Source: a virus
Direction: 5' to 3' (one strand)
Length of the DNA: 64,000 bases
Virus record (IMG/VR): IMGVR_UViG_3300032561_000012
Location: 1-64,000 of that record
Shown here piece after piece: positions 1-63,960 of the stretch. Numbering within the stretch: position 1 is the stretch's first letter; every line of letters starts with the position of its first letter. A model generated the notes under the pieces. It saw only the letters and a program-made list of their open reading frames with translations, had not been told where the DNA came from and ran no database searches. A program made the position numbers and the translations under genes.

Positions 1-1257
1 AGCCACAACCTGCATATAAGGGCTACGATCCCACCCAGGAGGCATATCGAAGTACTCGTGAACAAGCTCCTCAAGTATAACAGGCGCAAAAGGTCTAAAC
101 TTTTGTCTACGTTTGATTTCATTTACTTGATCCTTAATGTCTGGACCTCTAGGGTCCGCTAATAAACTACGGTTACCAAGGGCTCTAGGTCCAAACTCTG
201 CCCGCCCGCTGGCTACCCCAACAATTTTGTTAGTAACCAACTCGGAAATGATATCTTTAACAGGATAACGGCCAGCAATATTAGTGCCCAAGAAAGCATT
301 ATCCCAAACCAATCTTCTGCCCACTGCCATTGCAGCCGCGCCAAGGCTACTGCCAGCATCACCAGGATTAGGCATAATCCAAATGTTATCAAAATACTCT
401 CCTAGAATTCTATTTGCACTACAGTTAAGTGCTACTCCGCCGCAGTATACTAAATTTTCACTATAACCAATATCACTGGCTTTAATCATTATATTACCAA
501 TTAAGTCTTCTGTCAACTCTTGTACCTGCGCGGCCATGTCCATAGGGTCATTGGGATAGACTATGTCATCAGTTAATCCTAGGTGTAGATTCTGTTTGAA
601 CACGATGTTTTTTTCATCGTGTAATAGAGATGCTCTTAGTCGCAAACTACGAAGATCTACCACCTGACCCCATCCAGCCATGCCCATTAAGATATATTCT
701 TCATCTAGTGGTTTGAGTCCAGCTTGCTTGGTAAAGGCACTGTACATCAGACCAATGCTGTGCGGATACTTTTGCCCCCACAATTTTTTATACACGGCCT
801 TGCCACGGTCATCATAGTAACTATGCCAGATACTAATAGTGTCCCACTCGCCTATTGCATCAATGACAACCACCGTGGCATCTGTAAATGAGCTTGTTTG
901 AAAACCTGCGGCCGCATGTGTTAAGTGATGGTTGTAACTCTTAATAGGTAATTTATCTAGACTTAACTTAGGTAATTGTTGTTTTAATATACCTGAGACA
1001 GTCCATGGTGTTTTTAATTCACTCCACTGGCCAGCATACAATTGACGAGCCTTTTTAACCCACGGACGCTCATAGTATGCTATACGGTCTATGGATCCAT
1101 ACTTAAGCGCATCTTTGATTAATGGTTCATTTAAGTTACTGTCGTGTTTACGTTTGCTGTATCGTTCAGCATGTCCAGCAAACAGTATCTTCCCATCATC
1201 ATTGATGAGAGTTACTGCCGCATCATGAAACCCCGCAGAAATTCCTAAGATATTCAT
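1..1257 (-). CDS. NodU/CmcH-family carbamoyltransferase, partial (3' end outside window)
   Basis: The minus-strand frame is open from an ATG at 1257 to the window edge, giving 419 codons without a stop. It begins MNILGISAGFHDAAV, shows HHLTHAAAGF near residue 115 and EFGPRALGNRSLLADPR near residues 353-370. These match the N-terminal (ASKHA-like) and C-terminal (YrdC-like) domains of NodU/CmcH carbamoyltransferases. The family moves a carbamoyl group from carbamoyl phosphate, through an adenylated intermediate, onto a sugar or other hydroxyl. Family members usually run to about 550-600 residues, so roughly a quarter is missing here. The start lies 35 nt inside the preceding SGNH-like gene, which implies translational coupling. 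By context it would decorate a product of the downstream-named cassette; the substrate cannot be read from sequence. Confidence 0.88.
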   Translation of the reverse strand, partial: MNILGISAGFHDAAVTLINDDGKILFAGHAERYSKRKHDSNLNEPLIKDALKYGSIDRIAYYERPWVKKARQLYAGQWSELKTPWTVSGILKQQLPKLSLDKLPIKSYNHHLTHAAAGFQTSSFTDATVVVIDAIGEWDTISIWHSYYDDRGKAVYKKLWGQKYPHSIGLMYSAFTKQAGLKPLDEEYILMGMAGWGQVVDLRSLRLRASLLHDEKNIVFKQNLHLGLTDDIVYPNDPMDMAAQVQELTEDLIGNIMIKASDIGYSENLVYCGGVALNCSANRILGEYFDNIWIMPNPGDAGSSLGAAAMAVGRRLVWDNAFLGTNIAGRYPVKDIISELVTNKIVGVASGRAEFGPRALGNRSLLADPRGPDIKDQVNEIKRRQKFRPFAPVILEELVHEYFDMPPGWDRSPYMQVVA

Positions 1258-1984
1258 ATATTATTTTTTCAGCCTCAACGTGTGCAGGTTCCAATGGATG
1301 TGTAGTAGCAAAAGGAAATTTGTTCTGTTCTGCCCATTCATAAAACCCTAGGTTTGTAGGAAACCACATCCAATTACGATAATTTAATTGCTGTAATAAA
1401 GTAGTCAGTGTTGCATCATTTTTAAAATGACTGGTGTTATTCAAACTATGATCTACCATGGTAAACAGATAAGGTATTTTTTTCAATTCTAAATATTGTT
1501 GCATCATAACTATCTCGCATAATGATGCGTATAATTCCCAATATTCAAATGTACCTACATAGTGATAAAATACTTTGGCAAACTGAAATATTCCTTTTTC
1601 TTTATCTTTGGCTATTTTAGACACATGCCAGTCAAAGACCACAGGATTATCGTTGTGAAAGTATTCTTTAATAGACTTTGAATCGTCTATTATAGACCAT
1701 GAAGTTAACTGTTCCCACTCGTCTGCAATTCTAAATTCGTATCTTCCAGGAAATGTCCAAGTAATTAACACTAAGCCAATATCATCTTTCATTGCTTCGC
1801 AGGCATTCATAGTTTCTCTGCGTATAGCACTATTTGATCTACCTGGCATTGCCGCGCAATGATAGTCCATGCTTAGACGTTTGGCCAGCAGTGCTGGATA
1901 TGTATGTTGGCTAGGACAAAACTTGCAGTCAGCAAGTTCATTGCCGTAGGTAAAACTATCACCGCCAGCAATTAACGTAGCCAC
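1223..1984 (-). CDS. SGNH/GDSL hydrolase-like protein A
   Basis: This 253-residue protein opens with ATLIAGGDSFTYGNELAD. GDSFTYG corresponds to block I of SGNH hydrolases, which carries the nucleophilic serine. Near the C-terminus THPLEPAHVEAEKI resembles the block V region with the catalytic histidine, although the usual Asp is not obvious there. There is no signal peptide, so it should act in the cytoplasm. Families of this fold are esterases, deacetylases or O-acyltransferases. It overlaps the gene on either side (13 nt with protein B, 35 nt with the carbamoyltransferase). It is a divergent paralogue of the next two SGNH-like genes. A role in acyl or acetyl editing of a glycan is inferred only from its neighbours. 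Confidence 0.8.
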   Translation of the reverse strand: MATLIAGGDSFTYGNELADCKFCPSQHTYPALLAKRLSMDYHCAAMPGRSNSAIRRETMNACEAMKDDIGLVLITWTFPGRYEFRIADEWEQLTSWSIIDDSKSIKEYFHNDNPVVFDWHVSKIAKDKEKGIFQFAKVFYHYVGTFEYWELYASLCEIVMMQQYLELKKIPYLFTMVDHSLNNTSHFKNDATLTTLLQQLNYRNWMWFPTNLGFYEWAEQNKFPFATTHPLEPAHVEAEKIIYEYLRNFCGVS

Positions 1985-2616
1985 GACAGTTGTTCCATAT
2001 AATTGTAAATTTTGTCTGCTACCCTAGCATGTCCTTGTTCTAAAAAATGCTTACGAGGACCTTGAGGTGTACTGTCAGTCCATTCCATCATTGACTGATC
2101 AGGCCACCCTAGAAAATATTTTAATTCAATTTGACCTATTAGATCTTTATGCACAAGACTTTTTCTTTCTGTACTCTGATGATTTCCAAATGCGTCTAAC
2201 ATCAGATATTTTTTATTATGTGTTTTTAAATAGTTTTGTAATAATATATTGTTAATCAAATACTGTCTATATAGGTATTGGTCATTGTGATTCCAATTGA
2301 TATGATCTATTAGCCATTTTCTCCAAGGTGCTAGATGCTCATGTGGCAGTGGGCTACACCCTGGCCATAGGTCATATGTACCCGCACTGTCTGACCATTC
2401 TATCCTAGCAAAATGGCTCCATGCTATGACTACCATATCATAGTTATTAATTTGTTCTATACAGGTTCTAACCATACGAGTATTGCCAGTCCCTGGTTTT
2501 GCTAAGTTAGTTACTTCATAGCCTATTTTTTCTGCCAATAGATAAGGCCAAGCAGAATTTAAATCTGCTAGTTCTTCCCCGTAGGTAAAACTATCTCCAA
2601 CTGTTAATAATCGCAT
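1972..2616 (-). CDS. SGNH/GDSL hydrolase-like protein B
   Basis: The 214-residue protein starts MRLLTVGDSFTYGEELAD, with the same GDSFTYGxELAD block I as its neighbour. It continues with an SGNH-like G-x-N region (KPGTGNTRMVR) and ends with HFLEQGHARVADKIYNYM, where the histidine before A-x-V-A fits block V. The ATG overlaps the stop of the 33-residue peptide gene by one base (TAATG). The 3' end overlaps protein A by 13 nt. The three SGNH genes in a row look like local duplications that have since diverged. Enzyme activity is predicted from the family motif, and the substrate is unknown. Confidence 0.8.
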   Translation of the reverse strand: MRLLTVGDSFTYGEELADLNSAWPYLLAEKIGYEVTNLAKPGTGNTRMVRTCIEQINNYDMVVIAWSHFARIEWSDSAGTYDLWPGCSPLPHEHLAPWRKWLIDHINWNHNDQYLYRQYLINNILLQNYLKTHNKKYLMLDAFGNHQSTERKSLVHKDLIGQIELKYFLGWPDQSMMEWTDSTPQGPRKHFLEQGHARVADKIYNYMEQLSWLR

Positions 2617-2717
2617 TATTTGTAAATAAAAGGATCTCTTTTACGAAGTTCTTTTAACTTCTTACGATAGTGTAATTCTAATTTGATACGATTATAAAGA
2701 TTTCGTAACCACTTCAT
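2616..2717 (-). CDS. 33-residue basic peptide
   Basis: A short minus-strand frame runs from ATG at 2717 to TAA at 2618-2616 and encodes a 33-residue peptide ending in KELRKRDPFIYK. It starts inside the end of protein C (26-nt overlap) and stops in a TAATG overlap with protein B, so the whole operon is coupled through it. Those two overlaps are the main evidence that it is translated. The peptide is strongly basic and predicted helical, with alternating aromatic/aliphatic and Lys/Arg residues. It lacks the leader-core look, Cys, or Ser/Thr-rich tail of a typical RiPP precursor. It has no known function; a small adaptor or membrane-surface peptide is possible. Confidence 0.65.
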   Translation of the reverse strand: MKWLRNLYNRIKLELHYRKKLKELRKRDPFIYK

Positions 2718-3255
2718 TGAATTTCTCCTTAAGTAATTCATGCGCAGCTAAATGTGCGGCTTCTAGAGGGTGCCCGTCTGAACCCATACTGTACTTATTT
2801 TCTATTGCCCATTGGTAAAATCCTCTTGGTCTACAGGTGTCATGAGGATCTGTTCCTGCCGGAAACATATACCAATGGTCCCACGCTATCTGCGGATTAT
2901 CAGAGACTACACAGTTATCTACACAGGTAAACAAATAAGGAATATTATTCAATGTTAAATAATTTTGCAGTTCTAGTATTTCACTGTCACTGTCTAATTT
3001 GTTGTCTCTACTAGGCCAACTCCAACATACTATCACTAGGTGTTTGAGGTTAAATTCAACCAGTGGCATACAAGTATCTATCACTCTACGACATATTTCT
3101 TTATTGCCCAACCCAGGATATGCTGAGCACACATAGTTATTACCTGACAGCAGCGCCGTGAATGTTTTACGGCTGTAACCATCAGGCCCGCCATGTGGGC
3201 TGTCTGCAAGCTCACTGCCCCATATATGACTATCACCCCCTGCTACTGTAATCAT
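2692..3255 (-). CDS. SGNH/GDSL hydrolase-like protein C
   Basis: This 187-residue protein begins MITVAGGDSHIWGSELAD, a variant of block I in which GDS is kept and FTYG is replaced by HIWG. It ends with a well-formed block V-like segment, SDGHPLEAAHLAAHELL, holding Asp and His. It is shorter than protein A by about 65 residues, chiefly in the middle. The start lies 23 nt inside the preceding 388-residue gene. Of the three paralogues this one best preserves the D-x-H-P element. Hydrolase or acyltransferase chemistry is inferred from the family. Confidence 0.78.
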   Translation of the reverse strand: MITVAGGDSHIWGSELADSPHGGPDGYSRKTFTALLSGNNYVCSAYPGLGNKEICRRVIDTCMPLVEFNLKHLVIVCWSWPSRDNKLDSDSEILELQNYLTLNNIPYLFTCVDNCVVSDNPQIAWDHWYMFPAGTDPHDTCRPRGFYQWAIENKYSMGSDGHPLEAAHLAAHELLKEKFNEVVTKSL

Positions 3256-4399
3256 ATCCTGGTTTCATCATTGCTATTTGTTGTTGTTTATAGTCTGAAT
3301 CTGTCCAACAATAGTCAAAAGTATTAGCAATTCCATTGACTTCTATACGGTATATGTCTAGGTAGTTTGACATCTTAGTCCAGATCTCTTCAATGTTGTC
3401 AGTACCAAAACTGGCCATTAGATCTACACGACCAATTGGCAAATATCCTAAACTTAGTTTAGTGTCTGCAGGATCCAAATTGTTATCCACTAGCCATTGA
3501 GTAAATTCTGCTTGCTCTTTATCATGCCAAGGATACTTGCCGCCCTTGGTAACATCACGACTCCACTCTACATCAAATTCACCACTGTAATATTGTAGCT
3601 GTGTGATAGCGTCACAGACTGTACGATCCAAATTTGGGGCATGCTCATCACGCCATACTTCAAATAGAGTTTTGCCTATTTGTGTCCAATGCATATAGAC
3701 TCTGCCAAATTCTCTATCATACCCATTAGATAAAAATCCTTGACGATGTTGGTCTAATAGTGGATAGCGTTTGACTAACGGAAAAGTAGTTATCTGACTA
3801 GGGCGTATCCAGTCTGGGGCCATGGCTTTTTTACGTTGGCTTAGTATTAGGTTTTCTAACTCATGACATATGGTATTCAATTCGCGTATTGCATACTTTG
3901 TTTCATAGTCAGCATATTTGTAGTAGGGGCTTAAGTTATCCACAGTGCCCTGTAACAATTCAAAATGATTATGCAGTTGATTTAATATACCATGTTTTGG
4001 ACTCAATCCAATATTAGCATCATCTTTGATGTATAGATCAGGTAGATTATATTCAGCTGGAAACCTTACAGTATTTGGATGAAACCATTCTTCAATGATA
4101 TAAGGGCGCAGACCGTGATCTTGCCACACTTTAGTTTGATTAAATCTATTAATGGTTTCAATTGATGTGTTTAATTCACTGCAAAGAAACTCTAATGTAC
4201 GTTTGCTGTCAGGCCAACCTAGAAAACAAAAGTTTTTTTCTAAAAGTAGTTTTGAATTGAGTATTTCTTGTAGTGCTGATATCCAATCTTGTGCAAGTTT
4301 GTGATCATCAGCAATGATATAATAGTCAAGAAAATCCGTTTTGTCTAACGGATTGCGTAGAGTTACTTTAACCGATTGATTGGTACCATTCAAATACAT
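3233..4399 (-). CDS. Hypothetical protein of the radical SAM/SGNH cassette
   Basis: I do not recognise this 388-residue protein. It is soluble and rich in aromatic and charged residues. A segment near residue 60, CFLGWPDSKRTLEFLC, contains two Cys and a tryptophan motif; the C-terminal half contains WTQIGKTLFEVWRDEH and DVEWSRDVTKGGKYPW. The C-terminal tail (residues ~370-388) is basic. It overlaps the radical SAM gene upstream by 32 nt and SGNH protein C downstream by 23 nt, so it belongs to the same translational unit. Because it sits between the radical SAM set and the SGNH set, a partner or substrate-binding role is plausible. The sequence alone does not show one. Confidence 0.75.
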   Translation of the reverse strand: MYLNGTNQSVKVTLRNPLDKTDFLDYYIIADDHKLAQDWISALQEILNSKLLLEKNFCFLGWPDSKRTLEFLCSELNTSIETINRFNQTKVWQDHGLRPYIIEEWFHPNTVRFPAEYNLPDLYIKDDANIGLSPKHGILNQLHNHFELLQGTVDNLSPYYKYADYETKYAIRELNTICHELENLILSQRKKAMAPDWIRPSQITTFPLVKRYPLLDQHRQGFLSNGYDREFGRVYMHWTQIGKTLFEVWRDEHAPNLDRTVCDAITQLQYYSGEFDVEWSRDVTKGGKYPWHDKEQAEFTQWLVDNNLDPADTKLSLGYLPIGRVDLMASFGTDNIEEIWTKMSNYLDIYRIEVNGIANTFDYCWTDSDYKQQQIAMMKPGYDYSSRG

Positions 4400-5702
4400 C
4401 GCGTCTTTCCAATAAAATATCAGCCAAAATTAAGTCATCTTGGCGAATCGTTTCTAATTGTAACACACGATGCTTGCCTTTGTCAAGAGCAATCTGCCAT
4501 TCATTGGGCCACTGTTCTTGGAAGGTTGGGCGAGTTTTAAGCTGTATTAACATGTCCCTAAGTTGGCTATTTGCTAGTCCAATGCTATCGGGTCCGCCAT
4601 CCAAAAGTTCATCTATCCAAGGGTGTAATATTGACTTGGGTAGGGCCAAGGGTGACATGATAATATTAGGGCTAAAACTAAAGACAACTTTGGCTAAGAT
4701 GTCTACACCCAATTCTGTTGCTAACTGCTCAATATTACGAAGTTCAAACATACCCGGCAGGGTAAGTGTGAAGTCTAACCTCATCTGACGGCGGTGCGTA
4801 GCGATTCCAAGGCCTTCCTTAAAGTTATCAACCCACGCTTGATAGTCGAGACCTGTGCGTATATATTCTCCAATTCTGCCTGTACCATCAAGGCTTGCAC
4901 ATATTTGCCAGTCACGTAGCCTGCTGAGAATATCAGTATAGAGATTGACGCCGCGATAATTGACGCGACTAAGATTTGTGTTGTATCTAGCATAAACATT
5001 TTTACCATCTCCCAGTTCAACAATGCGCTGCATATAGCGCCAATGTTGTTCGTACATCAAGGGCTCACCGCCAACCCAATATACTTCCTCGATTTGATGA
5101 TTCTCTACCGCAGATGAAAATTCTTCTTCAATCTGCCCGTCCTGGAATGCTTCAATTTGACGTTTGATAGTAGGCTGCATCCAATTATTCTTTGGATCAC
5201 CCCAATTGATCATGTTATGTTGTCTTTGTTCACTCTCCCACGCACTAGACAACATATCACCGCACATACGACACTTAAAGTTGCAGAGATTACTAAAACG
5301 ATAATCCCAACTTACAGGCCGCATAGTTGTCGTTCCCTCTGCGTCTGTAGTGTCCCATATACTATTGTACTTATGAGCAAACAGTTGATCAAAATAACTA
5401 CGGTAAACGCTTGTGTTCAATAATTTATCATTGCAGACTTCACATTCAGGTAAGGTTTCACCTGCCATCATACGCACACGCACATCTTTCATATGTTCGC
5501 TGTTCCAGTGTTCCTCTAGAGTAATAGGAATATACTTGCCTGTACCACTAGCAGTGTCAATATACTGTTTAAAGTTTTGTGCAGGCTCGCGACTAGCACA
5601 ACACATTCGTCGCTCAGTCTGCGGACTTAGGTATGTGTGTACCCAAGGTGCTAGGCAAAGTGTCTTAGGTTTGTCCATATCCCATGGCCTTGGCAATTTC
5701 AT
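4368..5702 (-). CDS. Radical SAM protein 1 (N-terminal twitch/SPASM-like cysteines)
   Basis: The 444-residue protein has the radical SAM cluster motif C-x3-C-x2-C at C140, C144 and C147 (FSNLCNFKCRMCG) and the GGEP motif in VYWVGGEPLMYE near residue 212. These bind the [4Fe-4S] cluster and S-adenosylmethionine. Upstream of the core are C16, the pair C34-C35, and C87-x2-C90, a set like an auxiliary iron-sulfur (twitch or SPASM) site, but placed N-terminal instead of C-terminal. The enzyme should generate a 5'-deoxyadenosyl radical; the substrate is unknown. It overlaps its neighbours on both sides (32 and 38 nt) and is the last of six consecutive radical SAM genes. Confidence 0.9.
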   Translation of the reverse strand: MKLPRPWDMDKPKTLCLAPWVHTYLSPQTERRMCCASREPAQNFKQYIDTASGTGKYIPITLEEHWNSEHMKDVRVRMMAGETLPECEVCNDKLLNTSVYRSYFDQLFAHKYNSIWDTTDAEGTTTMRPVSWDYRFSNLCNFKCRMCGDMLSSAWESEQRQHNMINWGDPKNNWMQPTIKRQIEAFQDGQIEEEFSSAVENHQIEEVYWVGGEPLMYEQHWRYMQRIVELGDGKNVYARYNTNLSRVNYRGVNLYTDILSRLRDWQICASLDGTGRIGEYIRTGLDYQAWVDNFKEGLGIATHRRQMRLDFTLTLPGMFELRNIEQLATELGVDILAKVVFSFSPNIIMSPLALPKSILHPWIDELLDGGPDSIGLANSQLRDMLIQLKTRPTFQEQWPNEWQIALDKGKHRVLQLETIRQDDLILADILLERRDVFEWYQSIG

Positions 5703-6849
5703 TGTGTGAGTTTAAGAAACTTTGTTCTCTATATTTGTCCGTGGTCTGCATTTTTTGCAAAAATTCTTCACCGTCACTGCCTTGACCATTACGAATAAAT
5801 TTCACTATACGCATGATCTCTGCACGATGCTTGGGATGAAACTGATGATTTTCTAATCTATCGATCACTAACGCCTGCGCCGCGGGAGTCATGCGGCTGA
5901 TACACATGTGCCAGGGATCATGTAACATATTAAAGTATACATGATCAAATGTTTGGTCTTCAATCCAACGACAAATCTCTGGCAGATAGTAGACATTTTG
6001 TATGTTTACTGTTAGACATAACTGTGTTGAAAATTTAGCACTACGCATTGAATTAAATTTAACTAAATTGTTTTGTACTATATTCCAATCAGCGCCATAA
6101 CGCTCATATTCAAATCGTTCTTTAGTATTGTCAATGCTAAATGCTACTTCAACATGTTTAAAATGACTCCATATGTTATAGCAGTCAGGAAACACAGTGC
6201 CATTGGTGTTGTAGTGTATTTCAATATTTTTAGCATAGTCGTGATCTACAGCATATTGTAATAGATCAAAATGCTGTTGAATAAGGAAAGGTTCGCCACC
6301 TGTGAATTCAAAGTATTTAATGTTAGGCAGTAGAGCTTTTAGGTTATCCCAGAATTGAGGATTTTCTCTAGGCCAAGCACCATCAGTGAGAAACTTGTAA
6401 GCAAGATGTTCTTTACGATTAATACCTGGTACGTAGTCCATCTCTTCTTTAGCCCACTTACTACTTGACCAACTTCCACAAATACGGCACTTAAGATTAC
6501 AGATATTGCCCAACTTAAGGTCAATAAACCACAACTGATCAGGATTGACATTGTTAAAATCCACAAGATCATAGTATTCCTTTAGTCTAATGCGACTGTT
6601 CATGCGCTTGCTAGTACGTCCAGCGGCTTCTTCATCCCAGCAACGCTGGCAGGTACTAGGCTTATTACCAGCGAGAAAATCCTTGCGTAGATCCTGCATG
6701 TAGTCACTGTGATATATTTCTTCAAGAGTATGCTCTCTGAGATTATACCCAGAGATTTCATCTTTGGCTAAACAGCAAGGACGAGCTGTGCCTATAGGAC
6801 TGGTTTCAATACTAATCCAAGGTAGCATACAAATTTTTTCAGGCAACAT
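5665..6849 (-). CDS. Radical SAM protein 2 (N-terminal twitch/SPASM-like cysteines)
   Basis: The 394-residue protein carries C117, C121 and C124 (GNICNLKCRICG) as the radical SAM cluster site and FTGGEPF about 70 residues later. N-terminal auxiliary cysteines are C7, C25-C26 and C67-x2-C70, in the contexts CMLPW, ARPCC and CQRCW. These repeat the pattern of radical SAM proteins 1 and 3. It overlaps radical SAM 3 by 11 nt and radical SAM 1 by 38 nt. Sequence identity to the neighbours looks low outside the motifs, so this is an old paralogue, not a recent copy. A distinct substrate or step is inferred. Confidence 0.9.
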   Translation of the reverse strand: MLPEKICMLPWISIETSPIGTARPCCLAKDEISGYNLREHTLEEIYHSDYMQDLRKDFLAGNKPSTCQRCWDEEAAGRTSKRMNSRIRLKEYYDLVDFNNVNPDQLWFIDLKLGNICNLKCRICGSWSSSKWAKEEMDYVPGINRKEHLAYKFLTDGAWPRENPQFWDNLKALLPNIKYFEFTGGEPFLIQQHFDLLQYAVDHDYAKNIEIHYNTNGTVFPDCYNIWSHFKHVEVAFSIDNTKERFEYERYGADWNIVQNNLVKFNSMRSAKFSTQLCLTVNIQNVYYLPEICRWIEDQTFDHVYFNMLHDPWHMCISRMTPAAQALVIDRLENHQFHPKHRAEIMRIVKFIRNGQGSDGEEFLQKMQTTDKYREQSFLNSHNEIAKAMGYGQT

Positions 6850-8152: not shown

Positions 8153-9525
8153 AGAGTATCATACCATTCAGCTAATTGTGGAAAGGTATGTCTGAAGTCT
8201 TTGCCACGTCGTTGATCATACTGTTCATAGAAGTTCTTAAAGTCACGTTGTAATACTTCACGTGATAATGCACCACTGTGTGGACTATCTACTGTCTGTA
8301 GGTATTCAACCAATCTATCAAGTTGATTGAATTCATATTCGTGTAGATATTCACGGGCAGCATTTCCAAATCGTCCTAGTTCATGGGCAAACTCTACACG
8401 CATCTCTAAAGGCAATATCAATGGACTTTGGAAACTAGGGAATCGTAAAATGTTTAGGCTAAAGTTGATACTATCTTTGCCGTATTTCTTTTTAAGATTT
8501 ACAATGCTCCATAAAAATTCAGTTAGACTTGGTAAGCATAGGGCATTGATGGTACACATAACATGTAGGCCGCGCAATTTACCACTATCCAATAGATAAC
8601 TAACATTGCTAGCCCACTGATTCCAATCCAAGCCATCACGTATATAAATTGCGTGACGACCAATACTTTCATTGCTGGTGTACAAATCAAGTTCAATACC
8701 TTGTGTGGCATCTAATAGTCTCTCCAACTTATCTTGTTCAAATCCTAGGTTACTGTTAATAGCAAGTCTGGTAGAGCTTTTTCCTCTATTTGCTTGGAAC
8801 CACTCAATTAGTCTCCAAGTATATCCACTCATCAAGGGCTCTCCGCCTGTGATGCGTAGTTCTTTTAGGGTTTTGTGGAGGTCTGATTCCCACCAACGGA
8901 AGAACGCTTCCACGTAGGGATTAACTTGATCAATAGTATACAGTTGACTACTATCGTGAGTGTGAGTAAAGTGATTGCGTCCGTCAGATACGAGATGTTC
9001 ATAGGCTCCATTGCGTTTAATATCTCGTACCCAGGTAGTACTAAAAGCAGGGTTACAATAGCTACAAGCAAACTGGCATGTTCTATCGAAAGCGATTTCC
9101 AATGTTTGTAGGTCAACATCGCGATCAGGGCTAGTATTAAAAGCTTCATCTAAGTCTTTATCCTCATATATTACAGTTTTATAAACACGATCACTAATTG
9201 GCTCGGGCACATCTACCCCAGCATACTTAGGATCCTTGTACATGTCTTCAATTTTCCAGCAGTACTCACAACCCTTAGGGCGAAGTCCATCTTGCATCAA
9301 TGCACGATCATTTTTCTTTTCACGAGTGTTGTGCAGAGCTTTGGGATTAACCAATACCTGTTCAACACTGACCTGATGTGGCAATGGGTGGTGACAACTA
9401 GTAGTTTGTCCTGAACCTAACCATATAGTAGCATTGTACCATTTGGCCGCACAGAAGCTCTCTGACTTAATGTCAATTACTCTACGCTTGTATTGTAAGT
9501 CTGTTTCTTTAGCTAGCTTCGGCAT
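8149..9525 (-). CDS. Radical SAM protein 4 (CxHP subgroup)
   Basis: This 458-residue protein has the cluster motif C150, C154, C157 (FDRTCQFACSYCNP) and LRITGGEPLMSG. The N-terminal auxiliary set differs from proteins 1-3: C25, then C44 in SCHHPLPH where the others have a CC pair, then C86-x2-C89 (GCEYCW). A shared ALHNTREKKND element follows the histidine-rich motif. Together with radical SAM 5 it forms a second subgroup in which His may replace one Cys ligand. It overlaps radical SAM 3 by 4 nt and radical SAM 5 by 17 nt. Chemistry is certain at the family level; the reaction is not. Confidence 0.9.
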   Translation of the reverse strand: MPKLAKETDLQYKRRVIDIKSESFCAAKWYNATIWLGSGQTTSCHHPLPHQVSVEQVLVNPKALHNTREKKNDRALMQDGLRPKGCEYCWKIEDMYKDPKYAGVDVPEPISDRVYKTVIYEDKDLDEAFNTSPDRDVDLQTLEIAFDRTCQFACSYCNPAFSTTWVRDIKRNGAYEHLVSDGRNHFTHTHDSSQLYTIDQVNPYVEAFFRWWESDLHKTLKELRITGGEPLMSGYTWRLIEWFQANRGKSSTRLAINSNLGFEQDKLERLLDATQGIELDLYTSNESIGRHAIYIRDGLDWNQWASNVSYLLDSGKLRGLHVMCTINALCLPSLTEFLWSIVNLKKKYGKDSINFSLNILRFPSFQSPLILPLEMRVEFAHELGRFGNAAREYLHEYEFNQLDRLVEYLQTVDSPHSGALSREVLQRDFKNFYEQYDQRRGKDFRHTFPQLAEWYDTL

Positions 9526-10927
9526 GGTATTTGCACTCCTGCCAAAATTCTTTCATTTGTGGAAACACATCTAAGAATGTTTCATCACGTGCATCTTTTG
9601 TTGTAGCACCACGACGTTTATCATATTCATTAAAGAAGCGATAAAAATCAGCACGCTGTTCATGTAGATACTTGTCAGTGAGTTTCTTACCTTTCTTCAT
9701 CCAATCTAGGTCACGTTCTAGGCGTTGGATTTCATAGTCTTTGAATCCATCAAAACGAAGTTCACCTTCCTTAAGTTGATGTTGCTTCATATACTTGACT
9801 ACATCAGCTAATATCACAGTATAGCTTTCTGGAAGAATTTGTAGACTCTGCCAACTAGGTGTACGTAGTACAGGAGTATCAAACCAAACACGTTGATAAG
9901 TTGAACTATATGTCTTACGCAAAAACAAGATCTCTTCTAACAAACGTTTTAGTCCTAAAATGCTCAGATTGTTCATGGTAATAATAAACGTTAGGCTATT
10001 GCGTCCTGGAATTTCTTCTAAGAAACGAGTAGTATAGTCAACTACCCTACTAGGATTTAAGCCACGACGAATATAACTAGCATGTTCTGGAATACCAGTG
10101 TCAAGGCTTACATACTGCATGAAGTGTTCAATCTTTGTGCCTTCACATAACTGTTTGACTTTGTCTATATACTTGTTAAACAGTTCTGGTTCTACGCTAA
10201 AGTTACTAGTAACATCTACGTGTAAGTCACTCTTAGGTGCCGCTAGGATATAGTCAAACACACGATGCGTGTTCTTGTCCATTAGAGGTTCACCACCAGT
10301 CATTCTAAAATGTTTTAGTTTAGGGTATAGTTCAGGCCACCAAGCCCAAAACGCATCTACATAAGGATTATCATCTTTAACTGGAATAGGTTTGCGTCGA
10401 CCTTGGAAGTGTTCTGGAGCATTATGTGGCTTGCTGGTAGGATATGCACCCCAGCGGTCAATATCCTTTTGCCATTCTGTGCTGAACTGTGGACTGCAAT
10501 AGCTACATGCTAGATTACAGCCGTGACTAAAGTTTACTTCTACATAACTAGGAGTAACATCAGCGTCCCATGGTAGATCTTTAATAGTGTCGTAGTGTTC
10601 TGCCGCCCAGGGTTCACCACTACGATAGTGACGATCACTTAAGTGTCCAGCATCCTCCATAGTCCAGCAGTAGTTACACTCTTTAGGGCGAGTACCCTCT
10701 AGCATTTTCTTACGTTGTTCTTTCTTATATGCTGTGTTATGTAAGGCGCTAGGATGAAACACTAAAGGGGCCGCATCAATCTCATGTAAGGGAGGATGGT
10801 AACAGCTATTGTTTAATCCTGTAGGTAAATGTAGGCTTACCTGTTGCCATTTAGCCAAGCAAAGACTAGGACCTAGTTTGTCCTTCATCTCTTCTGCACT
10901 TGACATGAATACGCTTTTATTAGCCAT
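9509..10927 (-). CDS. Radical SAM protein 5 (CxHP subgroup)
   Basis: The 472-residue protein has C137, C141, C144 (FSHGCNLACSYCSP) and RMTGGEPLMDKN. Auxiliary residues are C23, C42 in SCYHPPLHE, and C84-x2-C87 (ECNYCW), followed by EDAGH. The ALHNTAYKKEQR segment matches ALHNTREKKND in radical SAM 4, so the two are direct paralogues with about the same length. Their C-terminal regions also share FYRFFNEYDKRRG / FKNFYEQYDQRRG. The start overlaps the stop of radical SAM 6 by 8 nt. The pair probably acts on related substrates or in successive steps, which is inference. Confidence 0.9.
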   Translation of the reverse strand: MANKSVFMSSAEEMKDKLGPSLCLAKWQQVSLHLPTGLNNSCYHPPLHEIDAAPLVFHPSALHNTAYKKEQRKKMLEGTRPKECNYCWTMEDAGHLSDRHYRSGEPWAAEHYDTIKDLPWDADVTPSYVEVNFSHGCNLACSYCSPQFSTEWQKDIDRWGAYPTSKPHNAPEHFQGRRKPIPVKDDNPYVDAFWAWWPELYPKLKHFRMTGGEPLMDKNTHRVFDYILAAPKSDLHVDVTSNFSVEPELFNKYIDKVKQLCEGTKIEHFMQYVSLDTGIPEHASYIRRGLNPSRVVDYTTRFLEEIPGRNSLTFIITMNNLSILGLKRLLEEILFLRKTYSSTYQRVWFDTPVLRTPSWQSLQILPESYTVILADVVKYMKQHQLKEGELRFDGFKDYEIQRLERDLDWMKKGKKLTDKYLHEQRADFYRFFNEYDKRRGATTKDARDETFLDVFPQMKEFWQECKYHAEAS

Positions 10928-12041
10928 TGTTATTTACTACCTGTTTATAAGCAACCTGTGAAAATGGAAGATAATCAAAAAGATTTTCTTTACGGATCTT
11001 ATCCAATAGCAATATGCTTGCTATAGTATTTAAAAACAAAGATTGTCCTTGATTTTTCTGTATTTTATTCTTAGCATACATTAATTGAGATATACTTTCT
11101 TGTGACAATGGCATCGTTAATGCTTGATCAACTTGTTGATTAGCCAATTCAATTAACTCTGGCGGTAGACAATCTACCGAATAGTAATCTGGAAATTCTA
11201 ATACAGATAACCACATGTCAATTCCTATATTGTTAAAATATTTTACATATTCATCTAAGAACCAAATATTTAAATTACTAACAACATTATCAGTTGTAAG
11301 TTTTAAATTGTCCATTTTATCTCGATGTTCTACCAGATCTTGAATATTTTTTTCTATCAAAGCCCAATTGGATCCTGATCGAAGACTATTAAGTTTTTCG
11401 CCAACAGCATCTATACTAATATGATAATCAACTATACCAAAATGTTTCCAATAATCAAATATAGATTTATCTTTATATTTTAACGTAGATACATTACTAT
11501 TGTATCTCAATGAGACATTTTGACTTTTTTCTTGTTTGATATATTCGTCTAATACTTCCCAATGGCAGGGATTTAATAAAGGTTCTCCCCCTGTAAAATA
11601 AATTTCTGTTACAGAATCATTTACTATTATGTCTAGATAGTCTGTTAAATCAGTAAAACTATCAATTTCAATCCCAAATTCTTTTTCCCATAGACTACTT
11701 GAGTGTGGCCCGCAGGTACGACAAGATAGATTACATACCTTAGAATTTCTTATATCAATATATTGATATCCAGTCCATGGCTGTTTACGATGATTCAGAC
11801 CTTGTCTATAACTTTTAACGTTGTTTGCTTCTTGTTTTGTGCATATACGGCATTCAGCAGGAGCACAATTTGTTTGTTTAATACGTTCTTTAAGATCAGC
11901 AAAAGGATTTCCTGTTTTTAAATCAGTAATATTTTTCCTGTAAGAATGATCAATTACACAACAGGGAGCAATTTTATTATTAGGAAAAAATGTAATGCCG
12001 TTGGTAATAGCTGCACAGGTCCATTGTTCTTTGCTTGTCAT
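10920..12041 (-). CDS. Radical SAM protein 6 (N-terminal twitch/SPASM-like cysteines)
   Basis: At 373 residues this is the shortest of the cassette. The radical SAM cysteines are C103, C107 and C110 (SKVCNLSCRTCGPH); the SAM-binding element is YFTGGEPLLNP. Auxiliary cysteines C9, C27-C28 and C59, C64, C67 lie upstream. The coding sequence is visibly richer in A and T than radical SAM 3-5, with many AAA, TTT and ATA codons, which suggests separate acquisition. It overlaps the glycosyltransferase gene by 4 nt and radical SAM 5 by 8 nt. It is the first radical SAM gene to be transcribed in the operon. Confidence 0.9.
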   Translation of the reverse strand: MTSKEQWTCAAITNGITFFPNNKIAPCCVIDHSYRKNITDLKTGNPFADLKERIKQTNCAPAECRICTKQEANNVKSYRQGLNHRKQPWTGYQYIDIRNSKVCNLSCRTCGPHSSSLWEKEFGIEIDSFTDLTDYLDIIVNDSVTEIYFTGGEPLLNPCHWEVLDEYIKQEKSQNVSLRYNSNVSTLKYKDKSIFDYWKHFGIVDYHISIDAVGEKLNSLRSGSNWALIEKNIQDLVEHRDKMDNLKLTTDNVVSNLNIWFLDEYVKYFNNIGIDMWLSVLEFPDYYSVDCLPPELIELANQQVDQALTMPLSQESISQLMYAKNKIQKNQGQSLFLNTIASILLLDKIRKENLFDYLPFSQVAYKQVVNNNG

Positions 12042-12937
12042 TCTCTAACCATTGGTCCTTGATTTTTAAAGTTACTCTTATAATGATGTTTAAAAAATTT
12101 GCTTTCTTCTGGATCCATATCCACAATAGGTAAACCTAAACGTTGCCGTAGTGTATCACCTATTACCTTGCAGTGATCTATAGCAATATCCTCATGGTTG
12201 TATTCATTCCATAGGTCTTCAAGTGTATCAAAGTCTTGTACCCAACGATATTCCCAATCGCATAGCATTGTTAAGTATGTGCCCAAGCGTGCGCCATATA
12301 TTGCCCAGAAGCCATTTTCTACATCTGCGCCTACTGTTTGCCAAATGCACAAATGGTCATAGTTACGTGAGTGTACACGTTGCTCAAACTCAGATAAATT
12401 AGGCTTTGCACCGCGATCTAAACACATCTTAACGCCTTCACGGAAGCCTGCACGCCATGCCTGGAAAGCTGTTTGATTAGGATATGTTGTTGAATAACAA
12501 TCTGCCATAGCCCAGTAGTTGGGATAGAAACAAAACTCTACATCATTCTTAGCGTCGCCGTCTGATGCTTCATGTGTTCGCATGTTATACACAAACTCTT
12601 TGGTCCAGCAACTTAGTCCTCCGTTTCCGTACTGTAGCCCATTAATATGGTTGCGAGCACGCCAACGAAATACTTTATCGCTATTAGCATCAGTAAGAGC
12701 AAGCTGAAGGTTAAAAAATCCTGGATCGGGTATATTATCACCGTCAACAACCACAAAACGATCAGTGTCGCTGATGTCAGCACATGCCTTGTGTGCGGCG
12801 TCACTGCCCTTAACTCCGTCAACCCTTTTTGCCCATGGTACCATGTTTTGAATCTTAATCCAATTTTGTTCTTTATTAGGTTCATCATATGTTAGGTATA
12901 TTACATCCAAGTCTGCTATGTCAATTAGTTGTGTCAT
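12038..12937 (-). CDS. GT-A-type glycosyltransferase-like protein
   Basis: The 299-residue protein starts with a Rossmann-like strand-loop (LDVIYLTYDEPN) and has RFVVVDGDNIPDPGFF near residues 83-99. The DGDN motif fits the metal- and nucleotide-sugar-binding D-x-D of GT-A glycosyltransferases. YGNGGLSCWTKEFV near residue 125 resembles the acceptor or sugar loop of those enzymes. No signal peptide or transmembrane segment is seen. It is not closely similar to the two glycosyltransferase-like genes upstream. It overlaps radical SAM 6 by 4 nt and the 120-residue orphan by 17 nt. Donor and acceptor are unknown. Confidence 0.72.
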   Translation of the reverse strand: MTQLIDIADLDVIYLTYDEPNKEQNWIKIQNMVPWAKRVDGVKGSDAAHKACADISDTDRFVVVDGDNIPDPGFFNLQLALTDANSDKVFRWRARNHINGLQYGNGGLSCWTKEFVYNMRTHEASDGDAKNDVEFCFYPNYWAMADCYSTTYPNQTAFQAWRAGFREGVKMCLDRGAKPNLSEFEQRVHSRNYDHLCIWQTVGADVENGFWAIYGARLGTYLTMLCDWEYRWVQDFDTLEDLWNEYNHEDIAIDHCKVIGDTLRQRLGLPIVDMDPEESKFFKHHYKSNFKNQGPMVRE

Positions 12938-13283
12938 AATATTCTATAGTTGAGTATTCTTCATTTTTTTCTAAAATCAATCCTGCATGATTTTTAACCA
13001 CGGCATATCCGTGATCGCTTTTCTTTAATTTTACACTAATTCCTAGGTCAAGAGCAATCTTTTCTAGACGATTTCTTTCTAAATTTACATAATACCTACT
13101 GGCATTATCGTATACATCCTTTTCTACAACCAAGTATTTGGTATTTTCTGGGTGTTGTTGCATAGTACACATAGTAATCTTACCCGTGTCATCATAATGA
13201 ACCCTATATTCAATGGGTTCAGGTACTATAACTCCAAAACTAGCCAGGGCCTGATTAAACTCTTCTTCCCAACTCATCTTCAT
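12921..13283 (-). CDS. Hypothetical protein, 120 residues
   Basis: I do not recognise this small protein. It reads as a compact alpha/beta domain: EYRVHYDDTGKITMC, then KYLVVEKDVYDN, then a helix and VKLKKSDHGYAVV. The start MKMSWEEEFNQAL lies 29 nt inside the preceding glycosyltransferase-like gene, and the stop overlaps the next gene by 17 nt. The double overlap supports real translation. A related reading is a phage-wide small accessory protein of the glycosyltransferase group. No catalytic motif can be pointed to. Confidence 0.7.
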   Translation of the reverse strand: MKMSWEEEFNQALASFGVIVPEPIEYRVHYDDTGKITMCTMQQHPENTKYLVVEKDVYDNASRYYVNLERNRLEKIALDLGISVKLKKSDHGYAVVKNHAGLILEKNEEYSTIEYYDTTN

Positions 13284-14121
13284 ATTCCTTAACTATATCA
13301 TCTGTGATCCATGACTTTTCATAATAGTGTAGTGGGTGATATTGATTTATATTATTAATACGCACCATTGGCAAATCCAATTCATAGACCAGTGCTTCGT
13401 GCCAGGGTATAGATCTACTCAATCCGTTAATGTCTGGTTTCATATGTACAAAATTAATAAAATCTATTGCAGGTAACAGACATTTTTCAACTCCTAGAGT
13501 TTTGGCTGCTATAGAGTAAACCACATCAGTGGTAGGTATTTTGTCTCGACAATTTTTTAATACATTATCTCTGATGTAATTCCAATTGGTAAAAATTTGT
13601 TCTGCGTATCTAAAAAAATCTGCAGAATCTTGACTATATCTAAAATACATTAGTCCGCTGTAGACATCTGGCAAGTCATTATCATCAAACAAACGTCTAT
13701 AACTACGCACTACGCTAGGTTGTTCTAGGTAATCTTTACATCCCTGACTAAGCGCAATGTTCTTTAATCTGAACGTAGTCCACCAGTGCGCTATGCTGCG
13801 AGTAAAAATCAAATCACTTTCTAATTTAATTGTTTCTTTAAACGGTGTTAGATAAAATACCTGCCACTCATTTGACAATTTCCACTCAGAATCTTTTGCC
13901 AGATCCTGTTCTAGTAGAATAACATAGTCAAAAACTCTGCGGTGTTGTTCTGTAATCTGTTCCATGGTTGCTGAGTCAACTATAACAGCATATTGACTGC
14001 CGGGCATGGTTAGCTTTATGCTCATGGCCTGCACATAGGCCAGACGTAGGTAATCAACGGTAGTATTTTGTGCTATTGACACAAACCCTTGTTGTGCCTG
14101 ATGAGGTGTTATTCTGTGCAT
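13255..14121 (-). CDS. Glycosyltransferase-like protein (family-8-like fold)
   Basis: The 288-residue protein contains YAVIVDSATMEQIT early, then FYLTPFKETIKLESDLIFTR near residues 90-108. LESDLIF corresponds in position to the D-x-D segment of GT-A/GT8-like enzymes, here as E-S-D. The middle (DVYSGLMYFRYSQDSADFF) resembles the acceptor-side region with a conserved aromatic. It is a paralogue of the next gene, which has ILIDGDYLV at the same place. The degenerate DxD makes catalytic activity uncertain. Overlaps are 13 nt upstream and 29 nt downstream. Confidence 0.65.
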   Translation of the reverse strand: MHRITPHQAQQGFVSIAQNTTVDYLRLAYVQAMSIKLTMPGSQYAVIVDSATMEQITEQHRRVFDYVILLEQDLAKDSEWKLSNEWQVFYLTPFKETIKLESDLIFTRSIAHWWTTFRLKNIALSQGCKDYLEQPSVVRSYRRLFDDNDLPDVYSGLMYFRYSQDSADFFRYAEQIFTNWNYIRDNVLKNCRDKIPTTDVVYSIAAKTLGVEKCLLPAIDFINFVHMKPDINGLSRSIPWHEALVYELDLPMVRINNINQYHPLHYYEKSWITDDIVKEYEDELGRRV

Positions 14122-14918
14122 ATTGTTTTTACAAAATTATCAAAATCATCTGACAACAAATATTCTTTATCCATAACGTGAATATTCTGTTGTGGTACCA
14201 GTACAGCTTTATTAGTTTCTTTAATTGTTATTAAACCCTTGTCAATTGACATTGATTTTATTGGATCATTGTAGGTAAACATTGACCACGGAATTAGAGT
14301 ATTGGGATTTTGATTATACCCGTTTAATAGATTATTGGCTATGGTAAATGCAAAGTCATTTCTAAAAGCCCCATGTTTAACATGATATAGATTCCAGTAG
14401 TATAGATAATTTCTTTGTACACGCCCTACTAGATTAAAAAACATCTGTGCTGTTGGTGTCTTTTTAAATACCGCGGCAGTGGCCCATTGATAGACTAATC
14501 CGTATGCGCCCATCTTATCAGGCCAAGCACCAAGTTGTGTTTGATTTTGTGCTGTGATTTTATAATCAAAATCTTGCTCAAATAATTTCAATAGATTGCA
14601 ATCTAAAACCAAATAATCGCCGTCAATTAAAATAGTTTCATCATACGGGCTTAGATCATATGCACGATATCTATTGCCGTTTTTCCATGCTGTGCCTTCT
14701 TTAGTTCTAATATTTGGCATGGTATTGCTGATGCAAATAACATTGTCAAATATATCACTGGCAATCTCAGAGTCAGTTATCAGTGTTACAGGTAGATTAA
14801 GTGTGTGAGCAATTAATTGACTAGAACGTTTGGCTATTTTTACATAGTCAACTGTGTCTGTATTAAAAGCAAATAATACAACACCTCTAGACTTTGCGGG
14901 CACGTTTGATTTCTGCAT
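14109..14918 (-). CDS. Glycosyltransferase-like protein (family-8-like fold)
   Basis: The 269-residue protein has GVVLFAFNTDTVDYVKIAK at its N-terminus, LPVTLITDSEIA near residue 45 and ETILIDGDYLVLDCN near residue 95. The DGD motif is a good GT-A D-x-D. NVICISNTMPNIRTKEG is similar to the nucleotide-sugar-binding loop seen in phage and bacterial GT8-like proteins. It shares its layout with the 13255-14121 protein, so the two are paralogues, and this one keeps the intact motif. It overlaps the 104-residue gene by 32 nt. It could glycosylate a small product, host polysaccharide or virion protein; the sequence does not decide. Confidence 0.68.
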   Translation of the reverse strand: MQKSNVPAKSRGVVLFAFNTDTVDYVKIAKRSSQLIAHTLNLPVTLITDSEIASDIFDNVICISNTMPNIRTKEGTAWKNGNRYRAYDLSPYDETILIDGDYLVLDCNLLKLFEQDFDYKITAQNQTQLGAWPDKMGAYGLVYQWATAAVFKKTPTAQMFFNLVGRVQRNYLYYWNLYHVKHGAFRNDFAFTIANNLLNGYNQNPNTLIPWSMFTYNDPIKSMSIDKGLITIKETNKAVLVPQQNIHVMDKEYLLSDDFDNFVKTICTE

Positions 14919-15201
14919 GCTGGATATGCCACATATTCATTACCATTTGATAATGTTGTTTACATAACCCTAAGAATTCTAATCTATTAACTAGGATTGG
15001 ATTTTGGTATGTGTCTTCTAAGAAGAGCTCATCTTCACCCCAGGTGACTACAAAAGAATACAGCTCAGGAGTTGCTTTAAACAACCCACCATTATAGGCA
15101 AAATGTAAATCAGTTTGAATTTTTTCGCGTAGAATACGCTTGTTGGTTTGGTAATCTGTTGCTAAACGGATTTGGTCTACAATTTTTTCTAAGTCGCTCA
15201 T
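14887..15201 (-). CDS. Hypothetical protein, 104 residues
   Basis: This small soluble protein starts MSDLEKIVDQIRLATDYQ and contains KIQTDLHFAYNGGLFKATPEL, a helix followed by a beta element, then a C-terminal helix with several His. It resembles a small conserved protein of uncharacterised function common near structural genes in T4-like environmental phages; this is from memory and not tested. It is the first gene of the accessory operon. It lies 37 nt downstream of the fibre gene, with no late-promoter element of its own, so read-through from the fibre genes is likely. A 5-bp hairpin (AGTCT-GCT-AGACT) sits in the 37-nt gap. Confidence 0.72.
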   Translation of the reverse strand: MSDLEKIVDQIRLATDYQTNKRILREKIQTDLHFAYNGGLFKATPELYSFVVTWGEDELFLEDTYQNPILVNRLEFLGLCKQHYQMVMNMWHIQHAEIKRARKV

Positions 15202-51985: not shown

Positions 51986-52690
51986 TTGAAAAAGATTTTA
52001 TACATCAACGGAGACAGTTATTCTGCACCAACTGAGTATGGGATGTATGGCAATGTTTTATCACATCAATATAATATTGGGTTAGTAAACAAAGCTGTCA
52101 TTGGTAGTTCAAACCACAGAATAATTCGATCTACTCTAGAAGATTGTATAAAATTTAAAAGACAAAATATAAACGTATATGTGATCATTGGCTTATCATT
52201 TTTCACACGTGAAGAAATATGGGCTAACACAGATAATGAATTTGTTAAAAGACTTAACGAATGCCCTGAAGGAAAATTTGTTACTTTAGACTCAGTTCGT
52301 AAAGAAGATTTAACTATTTTTGATAAACGACGATTAGTTGATTTAAATATTAATGTGCAGGTTGTACAATTACTTGTTAATATTTTTATGTTAACTAACA
52401 CATTAACTTTATTAAATATTCCTCATTTTATTTTTTCTGCGGCGCATAATCAGCCCAACAGTGAATTAAAATGGGGATATTTAAATCAATTAGAAGTTTA
52501 TCAAGATATTAAAAAAAGAAAGAATATTTTAGATATTTTTAATTTCAGTATCCCAACCTGGGCTAAAGAAAATAATGTAGATACTTCTGATACTGGGCAT
52601 TTAGTGAGTATTGGCACACATAAAATATTTGCTGATTATCTCTATGATAATCATCTATCAAAATTAAATTGGGACATCAATGATGTATGA
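51986..52690 (+). CDS. SGNH/GDSL hydrolase-like protein D
   Basis: The 234-residue protein starts at a TTG directly after the Hc1-like stop: KKILYINGDSYSAPTEYGMYG. GDSYS is block I; INVYVIIGLSFFTREEIW and DTSDTGHLVSIGTHKIFADYL supply later SGNH-like regions with candidate Asp and His. It is a fourth member of the GDS-x family seen in the minus-strand cassette. The gene is more A+T-rich than its neighbours, so it may be a later insertion. It overlaps the GIY-YIG gene by 11 nt. Confidence 0.72.
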   Translation: MKKILYINGDSYSAPTEYGMYGNVLSHQYNIGLVNKAVIGSSNHRIIRSTLEDCIKFKRQNINVYVIIGLSFFTREEIWANTDNEFVKRLNECPEGKFVTLDSVRKEDLTIFDKRRLVDLNINVQVVQLLVNIFMLTNTLTLLNIPHFIFSAAHNQPNSELKWGYLNQLEVYQDIKKRKNILDIFNFSIPTWAKENNVDTSDTGHLVSIGTHKIFADYLYDNHLSKLNWDINDV

Positions 52691-63882: not shown

Positions 63883-63960
63883 TACTTGTTCACTCAGACA
63901 AGAGAGTTTATGCAGCCCCACTGCGTAGGCCTAGAACGCCATTTATAAAGGAGAAAACAA

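What the first reader, a model, noticed from the sequence alone, without database searches (positions are those of the whole stretch)
1..15201. Phage-borne cassette of six radical SAM proteins with glycosyltransferases, SGNH proteins and a carbamoyltransferase
Fifteen minus-strand genes, nearly all overlapping by 1-38 nt, combine six consecutive radical SAM enzymes, three glycosyltransferase-like proteins, three SGNH-like proteins, a NodU-type carbamoyltransferase and small orphans. Families are clear from motifs. That they form one pathway is inferred from overlap and order. The content looks like synthesis or decoration of a modified sugar, nucleotide or surface glycan, and it sits directly after the tail-fibre genes. 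I know of no characterised phage system with this composition. It is the best candidate here for an undescribed system.
Basis: partly seen in the sequence, partly recalled or inferred. Interest (0 to 1): 0.88.

Follow-up and report, generated by a model that had tools for sequence, protein, structure and literature searches.

The report
Jumbo-phage radical SAM glycan cassette
A group of giant, still uncultured water-borne phages keeps, right behind a tail-fibre gene, a fixed row of sugar-transferring and radical enzymes that probably builds and chemically tailors an unusual sugar coat, most likely on the phage's own tail fibres.

Summary
NodU is cut off by the contig end. All six radical SAM (rSAM) proteins belong to NCBIfam N_Twi_rSAM, with catalytic and auxiliary-cluster cysteines intact. 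The cassette is strongly conserved. In 45 unique IMG/VR contigs spanning it, the order fibre-protein T - k - GT - GT - h - GT - R5 - R4 - R3 - R2 - R1 - ORF388 holds on one strand, apart from extra gene copies and a few losses. R1 and ORF388 go together: 142 contigs carry both, and two phages lack both. Carriers are one clade of jumbo T4-like phages (contigs to 374 kb, 11-16 N_Twi-type rSAMs in the large ones), plus one distant marine phage contig with 9 N_Twi and at least 8 other rSAMs in the same place. Cultured relatives tested lack it. ORF388 has a confidently predicted fold absent from PDB and seen only in uncharacterised phage proteins. Two glycosyltransferases are glycogenin/GT8-like, a third has a GT-A fold, and sugar-nucleotide genes follow. 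DNA hypermodification and RiPP readings are disfavoured. Best explanation: a virion (tail-fibre) glycan assembly and tailoring locus. Products and acceptor are unproven. I found no description of it.

The parts
1..1257 (-). NodU/TobZ-type O-carbamoyltransferase (N), 3' end cut off by contig end
   Evidence: PF02543 E 8e-37 and PF16861 E 5e-27; HHxxHA, GGVALN and EFGPRALG motifs here and in 115-118 of 118 relatives
1223..1984 (-). SGNH-like protein s1 (253 aa)
   Evidence: GDSFTYG motif and C-terminal HPLxxxH; DUF6071 only E 0.007
1972..2616 (-). SGNH-like protein s2 (214 aa)
   Evidence: DUF6071 PF19547 E 1.3e-10, GDSL E 2e-4
2692..3255 (-). SGNH-like protein s3 (187 aa)
   Evidence: GDSH motif and GHPLxxxH tail; fused in frame to ORF388 in L055
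3233..4399 (-). ORF388 (O): lineage-specific protein of a fold with no PDB match, partner candidate of R1
   Evidence: 69-sequence alignment with 34 invariant residues; AF2 pLDDT 91.7; no PDB match, phage-only relatives; always found with R1
4368..5702 (-). R1, N_Twi radical SAM
   Evidence: NF033640 288 bits; CxxxCxxC and four N-terminal Cys 100% conserved in 70 sequences; monophyletic
5665..6849 (-). R2, N_Twi radical SAM
   Evidence: NF033640 341 bits; Cys motifs conserved
6839..8152 (-). R3, N_Twi radical SAM
   Evidence: NF033640 401 bits; weak PDB profile similarity to viperin and, for the twitch part, BtrN
8149..9525 (-). R4, N_Twi radical SAM
   Evidence: NF033640 270 bits; Cys motifs conserved
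9509..10927 (-). R5, N_Twi radical SAM
   Evidence: NF033640 287 bits; near-monophyletic; present in all 45 spanning contigs
10920..12041 (-). R6, N_Twi radical SAM, accessory (5 of 45 contigs)
   Evidence: NF033640 231 bits
12038..12937 (-). g1, GT-A-fold glycosyltransferase-like protein, most conserved gene of the cassette among those aligned
   Evidence: mean column identity 70%; AF2 pLDDT 82; Foldseek to HddC, WrtF, RmlT, TarS/TarP, PBCV-1 GT
12921..13283 (-). h, conserved 120-aa protein of unknown function
   Evidence: in 39 of 45 spanning contigs; alignment A9
13255..14121 (-). g2, GT8/glycogenin-like glycosyltransferase
   Evidence: PDB profile hit glycogenin-1 E 1.8e-5; phrog_1903 in 17 of 29 members
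14109..14918 (-). g3, GT8-like paralogue of g2
   Evidence: hhalign to g2 99.4%, E 2.6e-21, with DxDY motif
14887..15201 (-). k, conserved 104-aa protein of unknown function between T and the GTs
   Evidence: in 44 of 45 spanning contigs; alignment A8
15239..16198 (-). T, tail-fibre-like structural protein, constant first gene of the syntenic block (proposed acceptor)
   Evidence: 39 of 45 spanning contigs, others mostly cut at the locus edge; also first in G049:C6, G055 and G060

Best explanation
The block T-k-g3-g2-h-g1-R5...R1-O-SGNH-NodU is one virion-linked unit that makes and installs a modified glycan, most likely on the tail-fibre protein T or its neighbours. Proposed order: the GT8-like g2/g3 attach and start the sugar, as glycogenin does on protein. 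g1 and accessory GTs extend it from NDP-sugars made with the downstream aminotransferase, epimerase and nucleotidyltransferase. The five or six N_Twi rSAM enzymes then carry out distinct radical steps on the sugars (oxidation, epimerisation, deoxygenation or C-C chemistry), with ORF388 as an obligate partner of R1. SGNH proteins adjust acyl groups and NodU O-carbamoylates hydroxyls. Shown: gene content, conservation, linkage, intact catalytic motifs and GT folds. Inferred: carbohydrate substrate of the rSAMs, acceptor, reaction order and expression with the late fibre genes.
For: Same order and strand in 45 unique contigs and the same T-k-GT-GT-x-g1-rSAM order in a distant marine phage contig. 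R1-R5 are distinct orthologous lines (R1, R4 and R5 cleanly, R3 mostly; R2 weakly resolved), so they are not interchangeable copies. Fe-S cysteines are 100% conserved. g2 matches glycogenin, g3 is homologous and g1 has a GT-A fold. DegT aminotransferase, NAD epimerase, PIG-L, Gfo/Idh and CTP_transf-like genes lie downstream or as inserts. MCP-selected contigs, chosen without reference to the cassette, also carry it: g1 in 11 of 16, and in 3 of 3 longer than 300 kb. O and R1 occur together in 142 contigs and are lost together in two phages. Nothing separates T from k but 37 nt with no terminator-like site on that strand. Natural fusions ORF388+SGNH and c0+rSAM.
Against: No virion or glycan data. 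Many twitch/SPASM rSAMs act on peptides. Synteny within one clade partly reflects descent. T has no recognised acceptor motif and no PDB relative. g1 fold matches are weak (best E 3e-3). Sugar-modifying rSAM precedent (BtrN) is only a weak profile match (E 0.07). No late-promoter consensus was found at the cassette.
Confidence: 0.45

Rival explanations
1. The same enzymes remodel the host cell surface polysaccharide during infection (superinfection exclusion or release), not the virion.
For: Content resembles bacterial polysaccharide loci: DegT, epimerase, PIG-L, carbamoyltransferase, SGNH and several GTs.
Against: The constant left border is a tail-fibre-like gene with k, in nearly every spanning contig and in the distant contig; in the 357-kb genome further SGNH/c0 genes follow the capsid gene. 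I noticed no flippase, polymerase or acceptor-lipid transferase, though I did not search for them systematically.
Confidence: 0.2
2. The rSAM enzymes modify protein or peptide directly (post-translational modification of T or a small protein, RiPP-like), and the GTs are ancillary.
For: Many twitch/SPASM rSAMs modify peptides (established knowledge); weak NCBIfam resemblance to peptide maturases; T is always adjacent.
Against: Genes overlap end to end, leaving little room for a precursor gene. The two small proteins have conserved, not hypervariable, C-termini. Carbamoyltransferase, SGNH, GT and sugar-nucleotide genes have no role in this scheme.
Confidence: 0.17
3. A diffusible small molecule (aminoglycoside-like natural product) is made: GTs, BtrN-like rSAM, TobZ-like carbamoyltransferase, StrB-like amidinotransferase.
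For: Enzyme classes overlap with aminocyclitol antibiotic pathways; amidinotransferase-like and halogenase genes occur as accessories.
Against: No cyclitol synthase, transporter or resistance gene noticed; fixed link to the fibre gene T.
Confidence: 0.1
4. DNA hypermodification: NodU carbamoylates hydroxymethyl-pyrimidine in phage DNA, and GTs/rSAMs elaborate it.
For: A phage NodU/TobZ-type enzyme makes 5-carbamoyloxymethylcytosine (PMC8670742); ThyA lies nearby.
Against: All 25 linked ThyA proteins keep Asn at the specificity position (PFN), whereas modified phages carry mostly Asp. In that paper carbamoyltransferases flanked by GTs are in unmodified contigs. NodU is accessory (37 of 45).
Confidence: 0.05

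Closest known systems
Virion glycosylation by phage-encoded GTs (mycobacteriophage capsid/tail-tube glycans; cited in PMC12619734)
   Same: Phage-encoded GTs in or near structural genes, proposed to decorate virion proteins
   Different: Those systems, as I know them, have no rSAM enzymes, carbamoyltransferase or ORF388-like protein; here 5-17 rSAMs form the bulk
Chlorovirus PBCV-1 and mimivirus self-encoded glycosylation (from general knowledge)
   Same: Large virus encoding its own GTs and sugar-nucleotide enzymes; g1 model weakly matches the PBCV-1 capsid GT 2p72
   Different: Eukaryotic viruses; no tandem rSAM array known to me; no sequence relationship of loci tested
N_Twi_rSAM family NF033640 (NCBIfam)
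   Same: All six rSAMs are members above the curated cut-off
   Different: The family has only a structural name; a tandem orthologous array fixed behind a phage fibre gene is not part of its definition
5-carbamoyloxymethylcytosine system (MetaGPA, PMC8670742)
   Same: NodU/TobZ-type carbamoyltransferase in phage
   Different: Associated with a dCMP-type thymidylate synthase (Asp177), absent here
Aminoglycoside tailoring (BtrN twitch rSAM dehydrogenase, TobZ carbamoyltransferase)
   Same: Same enzyme classes acting on sugar or cyclitol rings
   Different: No cyclitol pathway noticed; BtrN similarity only E 0.07 over the twitch part
Vibrio phage K566/K567/VS2 rSAM genes
   Same: Clustered N_Twi rSAMs in 250-kb myophages
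   Different: About 22-25% identity, 4-6 copies, no ORF388; those regions were not checked further for GTs

Membership tests
N_Twi_rSAM (NF033640) | Score above curated cut-off of 170 bits | tested here: met
   231-401 bits for all six
N_Twi_rSAM (NF033640) | CxxxCxxC plus N-terminal twitch cysteines | tested here: met
   R1-R5: CxxxCxxC and a four-Cys N-terminal set 100% conserved in 70 sequences each; R6 in 5
NodU/TobZ O-carbamoyltransferase | Carbam_trans_N and Carbam_trans_C domains with His/ATP motifs | tested here: met
   PF02543 and PF16861, motifs; C-terminus cut by contig end
GT8/glycogenin-like | Profile similarity and DxD-type site | tested here: met
   g2 to glycogenin E 1.8e-5 over 110 residues; g3 via g2 with DxDY; no activity shown
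GT-A glycosyltransferase (g1) | Significant fold or sequence match | tested here: inconclusive
   Foldseek best E 3e-3, prob 0.99, nearly all top hits GT/nucleotidyltransferase; Pfam GT2 E 0.018
Phage virion glycosylation system | GTs linked to structural genes | tested here: met
   fixed link to T and fibre genes
Phage virion glycosylation system | Glycan covalently on a virion protein | not testable with these tools
   needs virions
RiPP biosynthetic cluster | Precursor peptide gene with leader and variable core | tested here: not met
   almost no intergenic room; small proteins k, h lack a variable core
5cmC DNA modification | dCMP-type thymidylate synthase (Asp177) with carbamoyltransferase | tested here: not met
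   25 of 25 have Asn; criterion from PMC8670742
SGNH hydrolase | GDS block I and C-terminal His | tested here: met
   motifs present in three proteins; only s2 has a solid Pfam match

The most novel reading that the evidence does not exclude
A radical SAM assembly line dedicated to tail fibres: each orthologous N_Twi enzyme installs a different radical-chemistry change on a fibre-bound glycan (or on the fibre itself), ORF388 is a new enzyme or scaffold fold serving R1, and turnover of accessory genes diversifies the phage's receptor-contact or shielding chemistry. This would be a kind of virion chemistry not described in any phage.
Probability: 0.35. Interest if true: 0.92.

Novelty: new variant of a known kind. 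Interest (0 to 1): 0.74.

Why it matters
If the reading is right, phages use multi-step radical chemistry to build virion-surface structures, which would change views of how tail fibres are diversified and shielded. It would also give a large set of orthologous rSAM enzymes, and a protein of unseen fold, with a defined genetic context. Even if the acceptor is wrong, the conserved unit gives the otherwise functionless N_Twi_rSAM family a testable setting.

Tried and rejected
DNA modification: rejected as main reading (canonical ThyA). RiPP cluster: no precursor. Known phage system: tblastn of ORF388, g1, T, k and c0, and of distant g3, k and h versions, against 50,697 phage records gave nothing; R3 and R6 hit only Vibrio phages at about 22-25%; NodU is common in cyanophages at 25-29%. 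Bacterial origin: ORF388 was found in only 3 short MAG contigs, which look phage-derived or are very short. Atu_ph07 carries an ORF388-like fold, but the sequence profile did not find it there. Search for g2-like phrog_1903 and for k in cyanophages: nothing. T and k/h in PHROGs: no informative family. T4 late promoter TATAAATA: only at 46812 and 63373, fewer than chance. A paper on another aquatic jumbo lineage (moraphages, PMC12619734) also reports core GTs but has no mention of radical SAM, and is placed near Lak phages.
Full report
What is there. The window is the first 64 kb of an 84,542-base viral contig, so base 1 is the contig end and NodU is truncated. Sixteen minus-strand genes occupy 1-15201; 14 of 15 junctions overlap by 4-38 nt, with one 75-nt gap. 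The six consecutive rSAM proteins all exceed the curated cut-off of NF033640, N_Twi_rSAM, 'twitch domain-containing radical SAM protein'. In up to 70 relatives each, R1-R5 keep CxxxCxxC and a four-cysteine N-terminal auxiliary-cluster set without exception. They look catalytically competent.

It is a conserved cassette. Scans of IMG/VR with ORF388 and with R3 brought in loci that share one layout. After removing duplicate contigs, 45 span the region from T/k to ORF388. Presence among them: g3, g2, g1, R5, R4, R3, R1 and O in 45; k 44; R2 41; T 39; h 39; NodU 37; R6 5. All core genes are on one strand, and order is identical in 41; the other four differ only by an extra R3-like copy. These loci were chosen for having ORF388 or R3, so the presence of those two is built in; the rest is not. 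R1 directly precedes ORF388 in 141 of 145 contigs. R1 and ORF388 occur together in 142 unique contigs, ORF388 never without R1 in those IMG/VR contigs, and R1 without ORF388 only where the contig ends. In a more distant MAG-borne contig ORF388 does stand without an adjacent R1 (L142/G048).

An unbiased check. I also picked contigs by their major capsid protein alone. Of 16 longer ones, 11 carry g1 and 9 carry ORF388. All three longer than 300 kb carry the cassette. One of these, G055, has a reduced form: T-k-g3-g2-h-g1-R5, one further N_Twi rSAM and an R3-like gene on the opposite strand, without R1, ORF388 or NodU. L132 likewise lacks both R1 and ORF388. This marks T-k-g3-g2-(h)-g1-rSAM as the minimal unit and R1+ORF388 as a pair. 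Many of the shorter contigs are fragments, so absences in them show little.

Who carries it. The capsid protein is 74-92% identical among carriers whose record includes it (30 full-length matches). The best cultured matches are 63-68%: Sinorhizobium phage Phosso, Vibrio 2.275.O, PA5oct and UE-S1, all jumbo T4-like phages. These cultured relatives and Atu_ph07 have no g1, no ORF388 by sequence profile and no N_Twi rSAM above cut-off. Seven large carriers of 302-357 kb have 11-16 N_Twi-type matches each, and 14 well-known cellular genomes have none above the cut-off. A contig binned in a 'Rickettsiales' MAG (G049:C6) is evidently a marine phage: fibre genes, then T-k-g3-g2-(175 aa)-g1, followed by 9 N_Twi and at least 8 other rSAM genes. 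Thus the fibre+GT head is constant and the rSAM number varies. The host is unknown.

ORF388. It has 34 invariant columns across 69 sequences, many polar (H143, E147, H179, E180, E182, R199, R211, R229, K243, E247, D251, E252, D276, E278). The AlphaFold2 model is confident (mean pLDDT 91.7, pTM 0.88). No PDB fold matches (best E 0.26), and the only significant structural relatives are uncharacterised phage proteins, one in Agrobacterium jumbo phage Atu_ph07. In one contig it is fused in frame to SGNH187. A scaffold or enzyme acting with R1 is the simplest reading; this is inference.

Sugar chemistry. g2 matches glycogenin-1 by profile (E 1.8e-5). g3 is its paralogue. g1 is the most conserved of the cassette proteins aligned (70% mean column identity), and its model best matches HddC, WrtF, RmlT, TarS/TarP, RmlA and the PBCV-1 capsid GT, all weakly. 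Downstream or inserted genes include DegT aminotransferase, NAD epimerase, a CTP-transferase-like protein, PIG-L, Gfo/Idh, amidinotransferase-like, 2OG-oxygenase-like, B12-rSAM and tryptophan-halogenase genes; several of these names rest on sequence reading alone. An abundant accessory family (c0, about 361 aa) carries a TEK motif reminiscent of GT10 fucosyltransferases, with only a weak PDB hit (E 0.3).

Mechanism. I favour a virion glycan locus: g2/g3 initiate on a fibre protein, g1 and accessory GTs extend, R1-R6 alter ring carbons, SGNH proteins handle acyl groups, NodU carbamoylates. The constant 5' border by T is the main reason to favour the virion over the host surface. The weak link is substrate: twitch rSAMs act on peptides as well as on sugars (BtrN). 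I put about 0.8 on 'one functional unit', 0.7 on 'carbohydrate', and 0.45 on 'on virion fibres with rSAM acting on the glycan'.

Rivals. DNA carbamoylation: the linked ThyA proteins retain Asn at the position where modified phages mostly have Asp (criterion from PMC8670742). RiPP-like peptide maturation: no room for a precursor gene, and k and h have conserved C-termini. Host polysaccharide remodelling and a diffusible aminoglycoside-like product remain open.

Novelty. Full-text searches for radical SAM with phage, jumbo or huge phage, carbamoyltransferase, or twitch found no description; most subscription papers and all bioRxiv preprints are not covered. Phage virion glycosylation is a known kind; a tandem orthologous rSAM array with a novel-fold partner fixed behind a fibre gene is a new variant at least.

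Noticed in passing
window 63889-63963 +: freshwater-2 cis-regulatory RNA motif (RF02980, 53.4 bits) just upstream of a gene starting at 63961
   Followed up: no
window 50585-51598 +; contig 76747-78108 +: Two further radical SAM genes outside the cassette, one next to a gp46-like gene, one among tail genes; neither shows the N-terminal twitch pattern of R1-R6
   Followed up: partly
window 51986-52690 +: Another SGNH-like protein (GDSYS motif) beside the rSAM at 50585
   Followed up: no
window 23190-36200 -: A single 4336-residue ORF in the tail region
   Followed up: no
L205 (G003 261467-264015): SGNH and c0-family genes lie directly downstream of the major capsid gene of a 357-kb relative
   Followed up: partly
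L200-L201 (G003 172-183 kb): Second sugar-nucleotide cluster: three epimerases, likely FkbM-type and C-methyltransferases and split transketolase-like genes (by sequence reading)
   Followed up: no
L210/L211 (G049:C6): Contig in a 'Rickettsiales' MAG is phage and carries 9 N_Twi plus at least 8 other rSAM genes in tandem; likely misbinned
   Followed up: yes
L055 9998-11632; L132 7615-9993: In-frame fusions ORF388+SGNH and c0+N_Twi rSAM (one phage each); sequencing error not excluded
   Followed up: partly
L091/L011: IMG/VR contig 3300032753_000026 encodes ORF388 and R3 identical (100%) to the window's, probably the same virus; it too ends within NodU
   Followed up: no
L049 11958-13532: Tryptophan-halogenase family gene (PF04820, E 2e-59) next to the cassette of one phage
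   Followed up: no
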